The position numbers and the translations under genes are program-made. From Dactylellina haptotyla (lineage: Eukaryota > Ascomycota > Orbiliomycetes > Orbiliales > Orbiliaceae): 64,000 bases of DNA. Below, one piece after another: positions 52,082-62,993 of this stretch (positions within the stretch are counted from its first letter, which is position 1; every line of letters begins with the position of its first letter). Where the stretch lies: NCBI GenBank assembly GCA_031310005.1, contig CM062379.1, positions 7,719,608-7,783,607 on the forward strand, in the 5' to 3' direction. Below the pieces are notes generated by a model. That model made no database searches, had not been told where the DNA came from, and saw only the letters and a program-made list of their open reading frames with translations.

Positions 52082-52206
52082 GCTTTTCTAGTTCAAGATC
52101 GCCTGAGTCCTTCAACACGGTCTGCCAATTGCTCATCGCGCGACCTCGTTATACCACCGCCTTCTCAACATTGTAGATATCACCAACATCGGCAATACCA
52201 CCCGCG
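52082..52206. promoter_or_regulatory. Compact divergent promoter
   Basis: Only 125 bp separate the start codons of the HAUS4-like gene (minus) and SNU66 (plus), so both leaders and core promoters must share this stretch. I see no clear TATA or CCAAT box. Confidence 0.55.
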
Positions 52207-54369
52207 ATGGCGAACGATAACGTCGAGGAAATCTCCATCGAGGAGACGAACCGCATCCGTGTCTCTCTCGGCCTGAAACCGTTGCGAGGCACGGAGCCCG
52301 CGCCAGCACCACCAAAGGAAACCGCGCCGGCTAAGAAAGATGGGACTGGCGATGGCGAAATCTCAATCGAAGAGACCAATCGCCTGCGGATTGCGATGGG
52401 GCTGAAGCCTCTGAGGACTGATCCGGCGCCTGGTTCTGCACCTGCTGAAGACGACAACAGCTTCGACGCGCAGGAACGACGTGCTGCTGATAACTGGAAG
52501 AAGCACGAGGAGGACCTTTTGAAGAAGAAGAGAAGGGAAGAGGCTAAAGACCAGATCAGGAAGGCAAAGGATAAAGCTGATAGGGAAAGACTGCTGGAGG
52601 GTAAAGGGTTGGCGGATGATAGTGACGAGGACGATGCGAAAACGTGGATCAAGCAGGCGAAGAAGAGGCAGAAGAAGGCTGCTGCTCAGATTGAGAAGGA
52701 TCTCAGGGAGCGTGAAGAGGAGGAGGCTCGTCTGAGGAAGGACTATTCCTCAAAAGATCTAGCTGGGTTGAAAGTTGGCCATGATCTTGATGACCTTGGA
52801 GACGATATCGATGGCACCGTTCTTACTTTGAAGGATTCTGAAATTCTTGCGGATGACGATGAAGGTAGGAATGGCACGGAATCACCTGGGACGCTGCATG
52901 GCTCAGATGCTGATAATTATATAGGAGACGAGCTTGAAAATGCCGGTTTGGTCGAAAAGCAAAAGCTCAAAGAACGTCTAGACGCCAAGAAGCGCAAGCC
53001 AGACTATAATCCCTACGGCGACGACGATGACGGCGAAGCAGGTGTTCTCTCGAAATACGATGACGATATTGACCCAAATAAGAAGCGGAAATTCTTTGTC
53101 CTCGACGATAGTGGTTCTACAAACGCCGCTCCTCCCAAGAGCCTACAACGACAAATGCAGATATCCGAAAAACTTAAAAAGATCCCGATTAGTCTGGATA
53201 TTCTCAAACCTGCGGCGGAGGAGCAATCGGATTACGTTGATCCGTCAACTATCAAGGTAAAGAAGCCAAAAAAGAAGAAAGTCCGAACTCAAAGACGTCT
53301 TGCTGAAGAGGATGATGATATATTCCTGCCTGAAGCTGTCACTATCAACGGAAATAACACCGCTGGTAATGCTGGTGGCAGCGCGATGAATGTAGACTCC
53401 GAGAACAGACCAAAGAAAGTTTTCGAGGAATCGTTTGTCGATGATGATGATTTGTCGGCCGCATTGACGATCCAGCGACGGGCGGCGCTGAAGAAACAGA
53501 AGGCGCTGAATCCAGAAGAGCTGGCGAAGAAGCTCAAGGAGGAAGCTGCTGATGCGATGAAAGACGATGAGGAAGAGGCGCCTGGGATGATCATCGATGA
53601 TACTACAGAGTTCGTTGGCAGTCTGCAGGCACCAATTCTCACCGAACGTCGACCTCGAGCTCCGAAGGCCGAAGTCAAGTCTGAGCCCGAATCGCCTGAC
53701 GCTGATGCTGAAGGTGATCTCGCGATGGACGGTGCCGACTTCGGCAGGAGCGTATCTCCGGAAGCCCAGGAGGTCAAGAAGGAGCCTGCTGAGATAACAT
53801 CGACTGGATTGGAAGAGGAGGCTACGATTGGCGTCGGCGTCGGCGCCATGTTGTCAATGTTGCGGCAGCGACAACTGGTGGACTCTGCAGTTGATCCGGA
53901 GTCGCATAGAAAGATGCAAGAGAAGGAAGCATTTTTGGCTCGCCAGCGCGTCGCTCAGCAGGAGGCTGATCGCAAGGCCAGAGCGGCTAGGGAGAGAGAT
54001 CGTAACAGCGGTAAATTTGAAAAGATGTCTGCTCGTGAAAAGGAAGAATACGCTCGTTATGAGAATAAGATGCGAGACACCCAAGAGGCGAGAGAAGCTG
54101 CTGCTAGGTTTAAGGATTATAAACCTGATGTCAACATTGAGTATAAGGATGAACACGGAAGGGCGATGAACCAGAAGGAAGCGTTCAAGTATCTATCGCA
54201 TCAATTTCACGGCAAGGGGTCGGGTAAGCAGAAGACGGAGAAGAAGCTTAAGAAGATTGAAGATGAGAAGAAGAGAATGGCGGCGAGCAGTCTTAACCCT
54301 GAGGGAATGGTGGGCACGATTGCGGATACAGCGAAGAAGTCAAGGACGGCCGGAGTCAGACTCATGTGA
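52207..54369 (+). CDS. SNU66: U4/U6.U5 tri-snRNP protein Snu66 (SART1 family)
   Basis: Intronless 720-aa frame starting at ATG 52207. It opens with two HIND motifs, the elements through which Snu66 binds the ubiquitin-like protein Hub1: ISIEETNRIRVSLGLKPL (9-26) and ISIEETNRLRIAMGLKPL (52-69). Then come charged coiled-coil segments (WKKHEEDLLKKKRREEAKDQ), acidic stretches, GLKVGHDLDDLGDD, and the SART1 C-terminus (FKDYKPDVNIEYKDEHGRAM; KEAFKYLSHQFHGKGSGKQK). This is the standard SART1 layout and length. The protein works in the nucleus in tri-snRNP assembly and spliceosome activation. Its gene is itself intronless, in contrast to the exon-rich neighbours. It converges with the peptidyl-tRNA hydrolase gene, leaving 175 bp between the stop codons. 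Confidence 0.95.
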   Translation: MANDNVEEISIEETNRIRVSLGLKPLRGTEPAPAPPKETAPAKKDGTGDGEISIEETNRLRIAMGLKPLRTDPAPGSAPAEDDNSFDAQERRAADNWKKHEEDLLKKKRREEAKDQIRKAKDKADRERLLEGKGLADDSDEDDAKTWIKQAKKRQKKAAAQIEKDLREREEEEARLRKDYSSKDLAGLKVGHDLDDLGDDIDGTVLTLKDSEILADDDEGRNGTESPGTLHGSDADNYIGDELENAGLVEKQKLKERLDAKKRKPDYNPYGDDDDGEAGVLSKYDDDIDPNKKRKFFVLDDSGSTNAAPPKSLQRQMQISEKLKKIPISLDILKPAAEEQSDYVDPSTIKVKKPKKKKVRTQRRLAEEDDDIFLPEAVTINGNNTAGNAGGSAMNVDSENRPKKVFEESFVDDDDLSAALTIQRRAALKKQKALNPEELAKKLKEEAADAMKDDEEEAPGMIIDDTTEFVGSLQAPILTERRPRAPKAEVKSEPESPDADAEGDLAMDGADFGRSVSPEAQEVKKEPAEITSTGLEEEATIGVGVGAMLSMLRQRQLVDSAVDPESHRKMQEKEAFLARQRVAQQEADRKARAARERDRNSGKFEKMSAREKEEYARYENKMRDTQEAREAAARFKDYKPDVNIEYKDEHGRAMNQKEAFKYLSHQFHGKGSGKQKTEKKLKKIEDEKKRMAASSLNPEGMVGTIADTAKKSRTAGVRLM

Positions 54370-54544: not shown

Positions 54545-55273
54545 TTAAAGGAGCTTTAGATGTCCGGTAATCTGATTGATGACGCTCTTCGGAGCTGGGC
54601 CAATGCCCAAGACCGTTGACGAACCGGCGGCGATTTGTGTCCTGCCCGCGTCGTGAACAACTTTCGCGACTAAGCCTAGACTCATAGCTTGGGCTTGTAG
54701 GGTTAGAAGCTCCTCCTCGGAATCGACTTTGAGAGCAATCTTGGCCTGTCCCATGTATTCCCAGCGTTTCAGTAGTAGAGGGGCGTGGCGGGAGACGGCT
54801 TTGTAGCAGGCGAGGGTGGCGTGGCCGCACTGGGCTGCCATCTTGCCTTTGGTCATGCCGAGATCGGTTCTTACGCAAAAAACCTATTATTTAGTAGTAA
54901 GGTTAGGGATATAAACACTCTTGGGTGCTATTCGGCGACTCATGACACATTGGGTTTGTAAAGCACACACCAATTTACATTCCTCGCTGAGGGCACTGGC
55001 GCCGAAGTGGCTGTAATCTGATTGGATCATCGCTTCATTGTCACTATCCTCCTCTTCCTCTCCTTCCTCGGCTTCGCCCGCACTGATGTTTTCAAAGGAG
55101 TCTTTTAGGGAAGCGGACGAGGATTTGGATTTGGAGAGAGCTGCTGGAGGCGGCGCGGGGAGATCACGAATCCGGGTGGTGCTGGAGCCAATGATGTAGC
55201 CGCCCAGGCCGCTGGCAACGACGGTGACGAGCAGGGCGAGGAGGAAGTTGGGCGGGAAGTCGAGGCGGATCAT
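54545..55273 (-). CDS. PTH2: Peptidyl-tRNA hydrolase 2 (Pth2)
   Basis: Complement(join(54545..54883,54971..55273)), 213 aa. The intron has a GTGTGT donor, CTAAC branch and AATAG acceptor, joining EECKL to [20 protein letters not shown]. The core carries the Pth2 signature [17 protein letters not shown] and the downstream [32 protein letters not shown] and [11 protein letters not shown] end. An N-terminal hydrophobic helix ([20 protein letters not shown]) followed by an acidic linker matches the membrane-anchored eukaryotic form, usually on mitochondria. It releases tRNA from peptidyl-tRNAs that have dropped off ribosomes. The start is the first ATG in frame. It is divergent from the aminotransferase gene, with 760 bp between. 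Confidence 0.94.
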
Positions 55274-56033
55274 TCTTACAACTGGCTGACTGCGGGGAGG
55301 ATGTGTCGATGAGCGGCGTGGAAGTGGTCGAGGATCGTGTTCGTGTTTTTTTTGGTGAGGTTACTCTTTTGGGCGGTTGTCTGTGTGACACATCGCCGGA
55401 CCCCGTCGACACCACAACGCTTCGCCCGGTTGGAGGTATATGCGTATATATACAAGTATCTATATATGCCTATTATATGATTATATGCCACTAGCAGCGA
55501 TGATGGTTCCTATGCTAGCTTGGTTCGAAATAGAGCTGTGTGGAAGCCGCTCTAGCGTCGGCATGTGAGGGGCGAGTGAGGACATGCGCATCAGATAATG
55601 CCGGGCGATCGCCTGATAGCCGGCTAATTGTCCGTCAGGGCACAAATTGCTGAAAGAGTTAGCTCGTTCAGCCAGCAGCTCGCCGATTGGCCGAAGTTCC
55701 TTCCGCTCCCACTATGATGCAAGGTCACAGTGGTGCTCTGAACGGCGTCAAAAAATTTTGACAGTTGCTGGCGTGGTGCGAAAAAACAAGCGAGCTCTCT
55801 CCGGCCGGTTCTCGCTCTCAGACTCTCTCCTTCTCGTCCTCACTCGTCTCTGCTAGGGCTAGCTGACCTTCCTCTCCCTGCCATTGCTCATCCAATATAT
55901 CGTCCCTTTCCGCCTTCTTCCTCGTTCTCAGGTCTTCCTCTTGTCTCGTACCCAACCCTCTGGTCGAACTCCTCTCCCCTCAATCAATTGTGTGTGTGTG
56001 TCTCGCTTTTTATTCTTTCTTTAAATATAAAGG
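55274..56033. promoter_or_regulatory. Shared divergent intergenic region of PTH2 and the aminotransferase gene
   Basis: A 760-bp promoter region without coding sequence. The last 200 bases are CT-rich on the plus strand and contain a short (TG)n just before the ATG at 56034. Confidence 0.5.
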
Positions 56034-57862
56034 ATGCAGGCTATTACTCGCTCGTCGCTGAGTGCCGTGCGCGCTTCGGCCCGGCGAAGCGTATTTTCAT
56101 CCCGAGCCGGAGCTCATGCTGTTCGGACCGTGTCCGCTTGGTCCAAGGTTCCGGAGGGCCCCCCAGTAAGTCTCTATTCCCCCAGAGACATTATCACCGT
56201 GCATTTTATTTCTTATTTTTCCTGTTGGTTTCTCGGCTGGAATGGGTGGTGGATGGACCGCGCGCGGGAAATAGTTTCTCCACTGTTGTCGTTACACTAG
56301 ATATCTTGCTAACCTATCATATCGTGCATATCTAGGATGTAAGCCTTTTTATCGCCCCGGGTCAATTGATAAGAACGCAGCTTTGGTGTGTTTTTTTGGT
56401 GACTAATCTCGTTTCCGTCGCGGTTCGGATTATATAGGCCATTCTAGGTTGGTTTATCCATGCTGTGTGTGCTGTTGTATAATCTTCCAGTGATGCTGAT
56501 ATATTTTGTCCGCAGGTATCACCGAGGCTTTCAAGGCCGATAAGAACCCAAAGAAGGTCAATGTCGGTGAGTTCAACCCCCTCCTATATTTCTCAAACAC
56601 GAGGGAAATGCCCTTGCTGATATAATCTCTCAGGTGTCGGTGCGTACCGTGATGACAAGGGCAAGCCATACGTTCTCCCATCCGTCCGAGCAGCCGAAGA
56701 GAAAATCTTTGGCGAAGGTGTCGACAAGGAATACGCCGGCATCACCGGTGTCCCCAACTTTGTTAAGGCCGCCGCCGTCCTCGCCTATGGCAATGACTCC
56801 ACCCCGTTGAAGGAGAACCGCATCTCCATCACCCAATCGATATCCGGAACCGGCGCCCTCAGAATTGGTGGCGACTTCCTCGCTAGATTCTTCCCAGGCG
56901 AGAAGACCATCTACATCCCAACCCCATCCTGGGCCAACCACAAGGCCGTCTTCACCGACTCTGGTTTGAAAGTTCAGCAGTACAGGTACTACGACAAGAC
57001 CAAGATCGCCCTCGACGAGGCTGGTATGCTCGAGGACATCAAGGCTGCTCCCAACGGCTCCATCATCCTCCTCCACGCCTGCGCCCACAACCCCACCGGT
57101 ATCGACCCAACCCAGGCGCAATGGAAGGAAGTCTCCAAAATCATCAAGGAGAAGGGACACTTCGCTTTCTTCGACATGGCCTACCAGGGTTTCGCTTCCG
57201 GTGATACCAACGGAGACGCCTTCGCCGTCCGCCACTTCGTTGAGGAGGGTCACAACATTGCCCTCTGCCAGTCTTTCGCCAAGAACATGGGTCTCTACGG
57301 TGAGAGAGTTGGAGCTTTCTCACTCGTTTGCGGTTCCGCCGAGGAGAAGAAGGCGGTTGACTCCCAGCTTAAGATCCTCATCCGCCCAATGTACAGGTAT
57401 GTTATCGTGATTTATTGTTACTCATTGAACGTCAAATGCTAACGTGTATATTACTAGCAACCCACCTATCAATGGTGCCCGCATCGCCAGCCAGATCCTC
57501 AACGACCCAGAATTGAACAAGCAATGGCTCTCTGAAGTCAAGGGAATGGCTGATCGCATCATCGTCATGCGTGAATCCCTCAAATCTGAGCTCGAGAGAC
57601 TCGGTTCCCAGAAGGACTGGTCCCACATCACCTCCCAGGTATACCCTATATCCCCCCTTACAAAGTATTTAGAGTTAGGCTAATATGGATGATGTAGATT
57701 GGTATGTTTACCTACACTGGTCTCACTCCAGAGCAGGTTGACCGTCTCGCCAAGGAATTCTCCATCTATGGAACCCGCGATGGACGTATGTCTGTTGCCG
57801 GTATGACCTCTGGCAATGTCGGGTACCTCGCCGAGGCTATCCACAAGGTCACTTCCTCGTAA
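56034..57862 (+). CDS. Mitochondrial aspartate aminotransferase, with 3-nt and 10-nt exons
   Basis: Join(56034..56165,56336..56338,56438..56447,56516..56566,56634..57396,57458..57638,57698..57862), 434 aa. Residues 1-35 are an Arg/Ser/Ala-rich mitochondrial presequence. The enzyme proper starts VPEGPP, then Asp45, [20 protein letters not shown]. The PLP lysine is Lys282 in [26 protein letters not shown] and [13 protein letters not shown] are further family blocks. It interconverts aspartate + 2-oxoglutarate and oxaloacetate + glutamate (malate-aspartate shuttle). Reproducing the conserved GPPD-x-ILG requires a 3-nt exon (GAT, flanked by CTAG and GTAAGC) and a 10-nt exon (after TATATAG, before GTTGGT). 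Without the 3-nt exon the frame survives but the conserved Asp is lost. Branch-like sites (GCTAAC, GACTAAT, TGCTGAT) occur in all three introns. The rest of the model is unambiguous. Confidence 0.93.
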
Positions 57863-58344
57863 ACCTGGCATCTTCTTCCTTCTCGTATTCATGCATTTCG
57901 AGGGCGGATTTTATTGTAGATACTTTTTTTAAGTTTTGGAGGAGATCTATTCGTAGTGGTGGTCAATTGACGATACATTTTTCTTGTATTTATAGCTATA
58001 TGATATAAGTACGGTTAGAATCTGGCCATTGCGACATTTTAGAGGTAAAAACCAAAATATTTCTCTACGTATTTCCTATTCTTACCGTGTAGATGTTATC
58101 CTAAGTGACACAACGCATTTTACCCACTCTTACAATTGGCCAACCTCTAATAGTTTGAGAATGAGGCTGAAAGCTTTCATATCAATATGCAGTCACCTGC
58201 GGTCTTGGGGAGCGGCAGGACTAAATATTTAAAATAGAGCCACAGGTGCGATTTCACGGGATCAGAACCTTCCCTCATCTTCCCCCTTAGTCGCCAGTCG
58301 CCCCGGCTGCCGTAGCCGTTCGAATATCTCCAACTTTCGCGGCA

Positions 58345-61300: not shown

Positions 61301-62042
61301 AATGTTTCCGCTTGGGGCGATACTTTATAAGTTCAAAAATTGGGCAAAACCTGCGAGGTTGGCTCGGTTAATTTCCTTTGCTGTGTATTGGGGACTGGAA
61401 GACTGCTGTTACATTCTATTATCGCATGGCGGGGGAGTCTTGAATGATTTACCAGACCCTGAAAGCAACTTCTACCCAGTGAACCTAGCAGCAATGTTTG
61501 GTTTTGCCAACCTTGTGGAACCGCTTGCAAAATTTGGTTACGATTTGAATTTTACAAACAAAACTTTGAACGAAACTCCGCTTATATTGTCAGCCACTCG
61601 GATTCAAAAAGACGTTATGGGGAAGCTTCTGGAGTTTGGTGCATCACCAAATGTTGTTGATGGTGCTGGATGCAATGCCCTACACCATCTGATTAACAGT
61701 CCGGGGTACGAGATGATAGACAAGCTAACGTGTGCTCGTTTATTACTCGAGACGGAACCCAAACTCATCAATGTGCCTAATGGCCTTGGATATACTCCCA
61801 TTATGTTGGCCCTAGCAAAGTATACAGTGGGCTCCAAGGGGTCTGTTGAATTTATCGACTTGCTGATTGACATGGGCGCCAATCCTTATGACAGGGGTGG
61901 GAGGAGCGGGAATGCATATCAATTAGAGCGCCTGGGTGATAATACACTAATAGCAAAGCCAGGTAGTGATGTATTCAACTCGTTGGAGAAATCAAAATTT
62001 GGTGGATGGAATCCACTTACCGGGCTACTCAACTGGAGATGA
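58345..62042 (+). CDS. Protein kinase with two related ankyrin-repeat blocks
   Basis: Join(58345..58455,58536..58869,58951..59019,59105..60841,60943..62042), 1116 aa. The kinase domain has a Gly loop LGHGGFGSV (19-27), Lys42 in MACKAI, catalytic loop HRDLKPANVLL (141-151), DFG at Asp196 (TDFGLGKF), then MGTAGFIAPE and SDVYSLGCLLYAL, so all key residues are present. An insert of about 45 residues sits between the catalytic loop and DFG. A Pro/Thr-rich linker (about 320-440) leads to ankyrin block A (about 457-725), then a linker encoded across intron 4, then block B (about 824-1085). The two blocks align over their whole length (LLIKAGANPRA / YLIRAGADPRA; LAKYGYSLDV / LAKFGYDLNF; TAEPKLVNAIN / ETEPKLINVPN). 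Exon joins were set by frame and motif continuity; the intron at 58870 gives KPANVLL. The kinase type is near NEK/other fungal kinases; substrate unknown. Confidence 0.85.
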
Positions 62043-62993
62043 CACGCCAGACTAGGATTGACAAAACGGACGAAGATGCGGAGCTGGATCAGAGGGCTGT
62101 AAGTGACACAAAGTCTCCCAAATGAACACGAGATTGATAAGAGCCTATTTTGATCTCAAGTTCAGAACTGTAATATAAATATTCATAATTCATAGCATGA
62201 TGAAGATAACATCTAAAAGAATTTTCATCTTGGAGTATAAACTAGCGAGGTTTACTGAATGATAAAAGTAAACAACTAAGAATCAATTACATTCCTAAGG
62301 TAGGTACGTATTCAGCAACTCATTTCCTAGTAATTCATTCTTCCTCATCCTGTCGCCGCGGTCAATCACGGTCACTATCACACTCATATGGGTGAATGCC
62401 TCTTTGACAGAAAGACCAGTTTGTTTTCTTCCATATACCATGTAGAACTCTTCCACATTCACATATCTAAAACTCGGATCTCTTCCTACTCTGTACCAAA
62501 TTTATCATTTTGATCACATCCCTCTAACACCCGAGTCTGCAACTTACCGAACCGCTGTGCAGATGGATTCCAACATCTCAGTTTCTGGACCTAAGGTAGT
62601 TTCGTCGACGGCCACGGAATATGCCACAATTCCTTTAAATTTAGCAGATACAGATTCCTCATGACAACTCGCAAGTCTTTTCCAAAACTTGGTTCTATGT
62701 TCAATATGCATTGCAGAACCAGGTCAGTATCCACCTTCACGTTTACGTCCTCAGTAATATCGCAATCCCCGGTGCAAGGTATCTGCGACCTGTTCCGTCT
62801 AAACGGCATCAACATCTGCTTCCTAAATTTTCGCAATTCATCTTTCGACTTTTGCGCAGCATAGGTCTATCACCCCTCACGGTTGGATCTATAATATCAA
62901 ATCGGAAACGGTGAAGAAGGTGCCTATGATTGTGGCGAGGGCGGGAGATCGATTTCCGCCTTAGATATCCGAGTGAACGGGAAGTTTCCGTGT
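62043..62993. other. Interval with no supported gene
   Basis: Downstream of the kinase gene. Plus-strand 62,100-62,300 is AT-rich and probably 3' UTR. A minus-strand frame at 62,591-62,836 may be the downstream remains of the decayed gene to the right, but I cannot join them. Confidence 0.4.

What the first reader, a model, noticed from the sequence alone, without database searches (positions are those of the whole stretch)
56166..56515. A 3-nt exon and a 10-nt exon in the aspartate aminotransferase gene
Between CCA (56165) and the exon starting at 56516 the conserved peptide GPPD-A-ILG-ITEAF can be rebuilt only if GAT (56336-56338) and GCCATTCTAG (56438-56447) are separate exons. The GAT triplet sits exactly between a CTAG acceptor (GCTAAC branch point upstream) and a GTAAGC donor. 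The 10-nt exon sits between TATATAG and GTTGGT. The Asp is conserved from animals to plants in this enzyme. A single-codon exon is near the lower limit known for spliceosomal introns and too short for ordinary exon definition.
Basis: partly seen in the sequence, partly recalled or inferred. Interest (0 to 1): 0.85.

Follow-up and report, generated by a model that had tools for sequence, protein, structure and literature searches.

The report
Conserved single-codon exon in fungal enzyme
In this fungus the gene for a mitochondrial enzyme has one conserved amino acid on an exon of only three bases, and many database versions of the same enzyme from other fungi lack exactly that amino acid, which suggests an old tiny exon that gene-finding programs often miss.

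Summary
The gene is a mitochondrial aspartate aminotransferase of a probable orbiliomycete fungus: 434 codons, seven exons. Exon 2 is GAT (56336-56338) and exon 3 GCCATTCTAG (56438-56447). Of the GT/GC-AG splice paths tested, exactly one rebuilds GPPDAILGITEAF; none did in 3,000 shuffles. All six introns have a CTRAY branch point with no AG before the acceptor.

The new evidence is comparative. Of the 120 best relatives of the intact protein, 10 lack exactly this Asp. Two targeted searches raised this to 69 of 257 proteins, from at least ten classes of Pezizomycotina; none of the 82 proteins from sources other than NCBI, UniRef and nr lacks it. A Sarocladium strictum annotation and a protein from a 1.6-kb contig differ by this residue and one substitution. 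Asp is present in 79 of 80 bacterial relatives; the other alignment starts past it.

Best reading: an ancient, constitutive single-codon micro-exon, spliced stepwise by intron definition and often missed in annotation. Exons of 1 and 3 nt are already known, so this is a new member of a known kind. No transcript of this fungus and no second fungal DNA could be read.

The parts
56034..56165 (+). Exon 1 (132 nt): start codon, presumed transit peptide, ends ...EGPP
   Evidence: open frame and splice donor CCA|GTAAGT
56166..56335 (+). Intron 1 (170 nt), GTAAGT...ATCTAG, branch point GCTAAC 23 nt from the 3' end
56336..56338 (+). Exon 2: single-codon micro-exon GAT (Asp45)
   Evidence: only splice path found; only AG-GAY-GT in 56166-56437; same residue missing from 69 of 257 database proteins
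56339..56437 (+). Intron 2 (99 nt), GTAAGC...ATATAG, branch point ACTAAT 31 nt from the 3' end
56438..56447 (+). Exon 3: 10-nt micro-exon GCCATTCTAG (Ala-Ile-Leu and the first base of Gly)
   Evidence: residues DAIL replaced by other letters or missing in database proteins P0063, P0245, P0252, P0254
56448..56515 (+). Intron 3 (68 nt), GTTGGT...CCGCAG, branch point GCTGAT 16 nt from the 3' end
56516..56566 (+). Exon 4 (51 nt), completes Gly and reads [16 protein letters not shown]
56634..57396 (+). Exon 5 (763 nt)
57458..57638 (+). Exon 6 (181 nt)
57698..57862 (+). Exon 7 (165 nt), to the stop codon

Best explanation
The gene encodes mitochondrial aspartate aminotransferase. Its conserved Asp45 is encoded alone by a constitutive 3-nt exon, followed by a 10-nt exon. 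The spliceosome recognises each short intron as a unit (intron definition). Because the branch-point/AG complex of intron 1 and U1 on the donor of intron 2 would overlap across three bases, the two introns are most likely removed one after the other; either order leaves all remaining splice sites intact. Skipping would need a 272-nt intron, against 59-67 nt for the gene's last three introns. The exon was probably present in the common ancestor of Pezizomycotina and is kept because the enzyme needs the Asp. Shown: anatomy, uniqueness of the path among those tested, database pattern. Inferred: actual splicing, its order, constitutive use, age.
For: One GT/GC-AG path gives GPPDAILGITEAF, with minimum intron 20, 30 or 40 nt; 0 of 3,000 shuffles. 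6 of 6 introns carry a CTRAY branch point 13-31 nt upstream with no AG in between. 10 of the 120 best relatives lack exactly Asp; over three searches 69 of 257. Control: among 214 columns at least 97% identical, isolated one-residue gaps occur only at Asp45 (10) and Ser402 (3); the Ser402 gap is in P0046, P0068 and P0090, one lineage including a sequence from jgi/lgn sources, so it looks like a true deletion. 82 of 82 proteins from sources other than NCBI, UniRef and nr have Asp, including P0003, 431 aa, 80% identical to the query, longest contig 2,086 nt. Pairs: P0146/P0081 identical at 423 of 425 positions, Asp the only gap; P0190/P0217 416 of 422, Asp the only gap. Ten classes. Asp in 79 of 80 bacterial relatives.
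Against: No RNA from this species and no second fungal genome could be read; scans of viral contigs and genome contigs returned no fungal locus. The donor after GAT is the weakest of the six by U1 pairing (-4.3 kcal/mol; 21.5% of all GT on that strand of the window pair as well). 96 of 175 NCBI/UniRef/nr proteins do have Asp, so many species are annotated correctly or lack a flanking intron; the Aspergillus, Penicillium and Talaromyces proteins listed all have it. Searches used queries without Asp and are enriched for such proteins by design. The 82 other proteins are not proven transcripts: some lie on long genomic contigs (P0087, 2.8 Mb) and intronless genes would show Asp anyway.
Confidence: 0.92

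Rival explanations
1. The Asp codon is normally skipped: the 272-nt intron 56166-56437 is removed whole and the enzyme lacks Asp (GPPAILG). The Asp-less database proteins would then be real.
For: A frame-preserving skip path exists, one only; P0001 of Arthrobotrys entomopaga and 68 others are annotated that way.
Against: 82 of 82 proteins from sources other than NCBI, UniRef and nr have Asp, 54 of them with a longest contig of at most 2,100 nt; near-identical pairs differ at this residue; Asp in 79 of 80 bacterial relatives; the relative P0002 (Drechslerella dactyloides) is annotated with Asp.
Confidence: 0.04
2. Regulated alternative splicing: both forms are made and the inclusion of Asp tunes the enzyme.
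For: Skipping keeps the frame; the micro-exon donor is weak; a regulated micro-exon is known in a filamentous fungus (Xlr2, PMC11121469, abstract and outline seen).
Against: No Asp-less sequence among the 82 from sources other than NCBI, UniRef and nr. No isoforms were measured here.
Confidence: 0.06
3. A spliceosomal twin intron (stwintron): one intron interrupting a splice motif of another, so that the two are excised in a fixed order.
For: Two introns 3 nt apart in an ascomycete, stepwise excision expected.
Against: Each donor, branch point and acceptor is complete on its own; three coding bases remain between them, and no motif has to be rebuilt.
Confidence: 0.01
4. Ordinary sequence coincidence: Asp comes from a different splice path or the locus is a pseudogene.
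For: None found.
Against: No other path in the enumeration (internal exons up to 120 nt, at most two); open frame over 434 codons; YAG-GAY-GTRWG in 13 of 20,000 shuffles.
Confidence: 0.02

Closest known systems
1-nt exon of CYP621A in Fusarium (PMC12940212; abstract, part 1 of 3 of the text, and Discussion read)
   Same: Ultra-short exon in an ascomycete, inside a conserved motif, inferred from the need to rebuild that motif, conserved among orthologues
   Different: 1 nt, frame-changing if skipped, one genus; supported by SRA reads. Here 3 nt, frame-neutral, apparently subphylum-wide, no reads seen
1-nt exons of APC11 and VPS55 in land plants (PMC4674806 abstract and Discussion; PMC8831610 passages)
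   Same: Ancient, missing in reference annotations; for APC11 the authors propose intron definition with stepwise removal
   Different: Plants, 1 nt; verified by RNA-seq and RT-PCR
3-bp micro-exon of Drosophila homothorax (PMC7392893; abstract and passages)
   Same: Single-codon exon conserved over long evolution
   Different: In flies it is an alternative to a 48-bp exon that contains it; developmental regulator, not a metabolic enzyme
Xlr2 micro-exon of Trichoderma (PMC11121469; abstract and outline)
   Same: Micro-exon in a filamentous fungus
   Different: Regulated switch that gives or removes a DNA-binding domain
Spliceosomal twin introns of Ascomycota (PMC6616335 passages; other titles and abstract starts)
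   Same: Neighbouring introns removed one after the other
   Different: In stwintrons one intron splits a splice motif of the other; here all motifs are whole

Membership tests
Spliceosomal micro-exon (constitutive, ultra-short) | Internal exon of a few nt between canonical acceptor and donor | tested here: met
   CTAG|GAT|GTAAGC and TATATAG|GCCATTCTAG|GTTGGT
Spliceosomal micro-exon (constitutive, ultra-short) | Each flanking intron has its own donor, branch point and acceptor | tested here: met
   CTRAY in 6 of 6 introns, no AG between it and the acceptor
Spliceosomal micro-exon (constitutive, ultra-short) | Present in mature mRNA, constitutively | not testable with these tools
   No RNA of this species; indirect support from 82 of 82 proteins of relatives from sources other than NCBI, UniRef and nr
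Spliceosomal micro-exon (constitutive, ultra-short) | Conserved in orthologous genes of related species | tested here: inconclusive
   Inferred from Asp-less annotations in ten classes; no second genomic sequence read
Spliceosomal twin intron (stwintron) | An internal intron interrupts the donor, branch point or acceptor of an external intron | tested here: not met
   Donors, branch points and acceptors around the two micro-exons are contiguous
Mitochondrial aspartate aminotransferase | Aminotransferase class I and II domain and mitochondrial-type N-terminus GPPD-ILG | tested here: met
   PF00155 on the locus; best solved structure is a mitochondrial enzyme, E 3.4e-175; closest proteins 90, 88 and 80% identical

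The most novel reading that the evidence does not exclude
The 3-nt Asp exon, and perhaps the 10-nt exon beside it, date from the common ancestor of Pezizomycotina and have been spliced constitutively in a housekeeping gene ever since, making this one of the oldest and most widely shared single-codon exons and a systematic error in public fungal protein sets.
Probability: 0.7. Interest if true: 0.7.

Novelty: new member of a known kind. Interest (0 to 1): 0.57.

Why it matters
If confirmed, a conserved single-codon exon in an enzyme of many filamentous fungi gives a simple, genetically tractable test of how a spliceosome handles two introns three bases apart without exon definition: order of removal, fidelity and what prevents skipping. 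It also means that many public fungal aspartate aminotransferase records lack a residue that their relatives keep, a warning for annotation, modelling and phylogeny. The signature (one conserved residue missing only in annotated proteins) is a cheap way to look for other such exons.

Tried and rejected
Second gene copy as independent evidence: rejected, the copy at G000:C6 is identical over 9,901 nt. Cytosolic paralogue (L004): it reads APTDPLFG without interruption, so the micro-exon is not shared with it. Fungal DNA in other collections: two scans of viral contigs gave no relative and one of genome contigs kept 80 of 109 relatives, all bacterial by title; these served only to test Asp conservation. 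RNA structure around the exon: nothing beyond shuffles, z -0.19; no Rfam match over the gathering score in 55900-57900. Predicted structure of P0002: helix 45-55 starts right after Asp44, but residues 1-44 have pLDDT under 50, so a helix-cap role is only a guess. Genome-wide splice-site statistics: not done. Literature: no paper on a micro-exon in fungal aspartate aminotransferase turned up in the listings; searches returned no paper at all, and the library omits most subscription journals. PMC3162530 (passages) describes software that can rebuild one-residue exons, with no mention of aspartate aminotransferase.

Full report
Gene and source. The window is the end of contig C1 of a 39.8-Mb genome in 11 contigs. 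The closest proteins to the predicted product are from Arthrobotrys entomopaga (P0001, 90%) and Drechslerella dactyloides (P0002, 88%), so the fungus is probably an orbiliomycete (class of Arthrobotrys; the assignment is inference). The gene matches PF00155 and the best solved structures are mitochondrial aspartate aminotransferases. Joining 56034-56165, 56336-56338, 56438-56447, 56516-56566, 56634-57396, 57458-57638 and 57698-57862 gives 434 codons and a stop.

Is the tiny exon forced by the sequence? I enumerated splice paths from exon 1 to exon 4 with up to two internal exons of at most 120 nt, donors GT or GC, acceptor AG, outer sites movable by 20 nt, and minimum intron 20, 30 or 40 nt. 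Exactly one path gives VPEGPPDAILGITEAF; exactly one gives the Asp-less form, by a 272-nt intron 56166-56437 (minimum intron 30 for the latter). With the outer sites kept and the rest shuffled (dinucleotides kept, donors GT only, minimum intron 45), 0 of 3,000 shuffles gave the full peptide. For the Asp exon alone, 419 of 20,000 shuffles had AG-GAY-GT, 13 had YAG-GAY-GTRWG and 1 also had a branch point upstream; the window has one YAG-GAY-GTRWG in both strands together.

Splice signals. All six introns have a CTRAY branch point 13-31 nt from the 3' end and no AG between it and the acceptor, so scanning from the branch point reaches the used acceptor first. U1 pairing energies of the six donors are -5.6, -4.3, -6.4, -9.4, -8.3 and -7.2 kcal/mol; the donor after GAT is the weakest, and 21.5% of all GT on that strand of the window pair as well. 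This is the weak side of the case.

Comparative evidence. The 120 best relatives of the intact protein include 103 with Asp, 10 lacking exactly Asp (GPPAILG) and 7 with other disturbances at this place. The 39 from sources other than NCBI, UniRef and nr all have Asp; the Fisher test of 10 against 64 and 0 against 39, the 7 disturbed ones left out, gives p = 0.015. Two further searches with queries lacking Asp (enriched for such proteins by design; 120 of 341 and 120 of 1,181 hits listed) bring the total to 257: 178 with Asp (one of them, P0149, a basidiomycete by name), 69 without, 10 disturbed. All 82 from sources other than NCBI, UniRef and nr have Asp. Of these 82, 54 have a longest contig of at most 2,100 nt (40, 14), as expected of transcripts, though intronless genes would look the same.

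Control for chance annotation errors. Aligning the 120 proteins, 214 columns in residues 34-432 are at least 97% identical. Isolated one-residue gaps occur at Asp45 in 10 and Ser402 in 3, and at none of the other 212. In less conserved columns there are more: position 22 in the N-terminal extension (46), 154 (4), 11 (3) and single cases. The Ser402 gap is in P0046, P0068 and P0090; two are Xylographa and P0046 is from jgi and lgn, so it is likely a true deletion. The Asp gap behaves differently: it is scattered over many classes and seen only in NCBI/UniRef/nr proteins.

Near-identical pairs. P0146 (Sarocladium strictum, annotated) and P0081 (longest contig 1,622 nt) are identical at 423 of 425 positions; the only gap is Asp and there is one substitution. 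P0190 (Cytospora chrysosperma) and P0217 (longest contig 5,094 nt, so not clearly a transcript) agree at 416 of 422 with Asp the only gap. P0068 and P0090 (Xylographa) read GPPDVSTAILG and GPPDVSIAILG, as if the start of an intron (GTAAGT would read Val-Ser) were translated right after Asp, while the close P0046 (95% and 94%) reads GPPDAILG. P0064 reads GPPVSITEAF, as if an intron started right after GPP. P0063, P0245, P0252 and P0254 lose DAIL and resume at GITEAF; P0063 is from a pezizomycete and P0245 from a sordariomycete, which suggests that the second small exon is also shared; this is weaker.

Distribution. Asp-less annotations come from Orbiliomycetes (P0001), Pezizomycetes (P0153, P0176), Sareomycetes (P0178), Coniocybomycetes (P0089), Xylobotryomycetes (P0028), Arthoniomycetes (P0141), Lecanoromycetes (P0034), Leotiomycetes (P0169), Dothideomycetes (P0187) and Sordariomycetes (P0120). 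With early-branching classes included (branching order recalled), a single origin before the radiation of Pezizomycotina is the simplest reading. No Asp-less protein named Aspergillus, Penicillium or Talaromyces was listed; they may lack a flanking intron or be annotated well.

Need for the residue. Asp is aligned in the five solved mitochondrial enzymes displayed. Of 80 bacterial relatives, 79 have Asp there and one alignment starts past it; many of these local alignments begin at this very residue, which biases the count somewhat. The cytosolic paralogue in this genome reads APTDPLFG in one uninterrupted frame. In the model of P0002 a helix begins right after this Asp, but with low confidence there.

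Mechanism (inference; the U1 footprint is recalled). U1 on a donor covers the last three exon bases, here the whole exon, and touches the acceptor of the intron before it, so both introns can hardly be defined at once. Stepwise intron definition, as proposed for the 1-nt exon of APC11 (PMC4674806, Discussion read), fits. Either order leaves intact sites. Intron lengths of 170 and 99 nt against 272 nt for skipping may favour inclusion.

Place among known things. Exons of 1 nt are known in Arabidopsis (PMC4674806), other land plants (PMC8831610, passages) and Fusarium (PMC12940212), and 3-nt exons in animals (PMC7392893, passages). The abstract of the Fusarium paper calls its case the first for a fungal gene. 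A stwintron is excluded by definition since no motif is split. I found no paper on this exon (listings; nothing returned), within the limits of that library. So: a new member of a known kind, notable for breadth and for the annotation error it appears to cause.

Noticed in passing
23120-64000: The last 40.9 kb of the window (contig end) is also present inside contig C6 (about 1188052-1228840) at 99.98% and 99.5% identity in two pieces; either a recent segmental duplication or redundant assembly.
   Followed up: partly
61963-62061: A 99-bp stretch of the window is absent from the C6 copy, the largest difference between the two copies.
   Followed up: partly
52177-54366: Upstream neighbour on the + strand encodes a SART-1 family protein (PF03343; a tri-snRNP splicing factor family, recalled), probably coincidental.
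   Followed up: partly
54548-54883: Divergent neighbour on the - strand matches peptidyl-tRNA hydrolase PTH2 (PF01981).
   Followed up: partly
database proteins P0046, P0068, P0090: A one-residue deletion at the position of Ser402 shared by two Xylographa proteins and a close jgi/lgn sequence, likely a true lineage deletion.
   Followed up: partly
L004: The cytosolic aspartate aminotransferase paralogue has no intron at the micro-exon position.
   Followed up: yes
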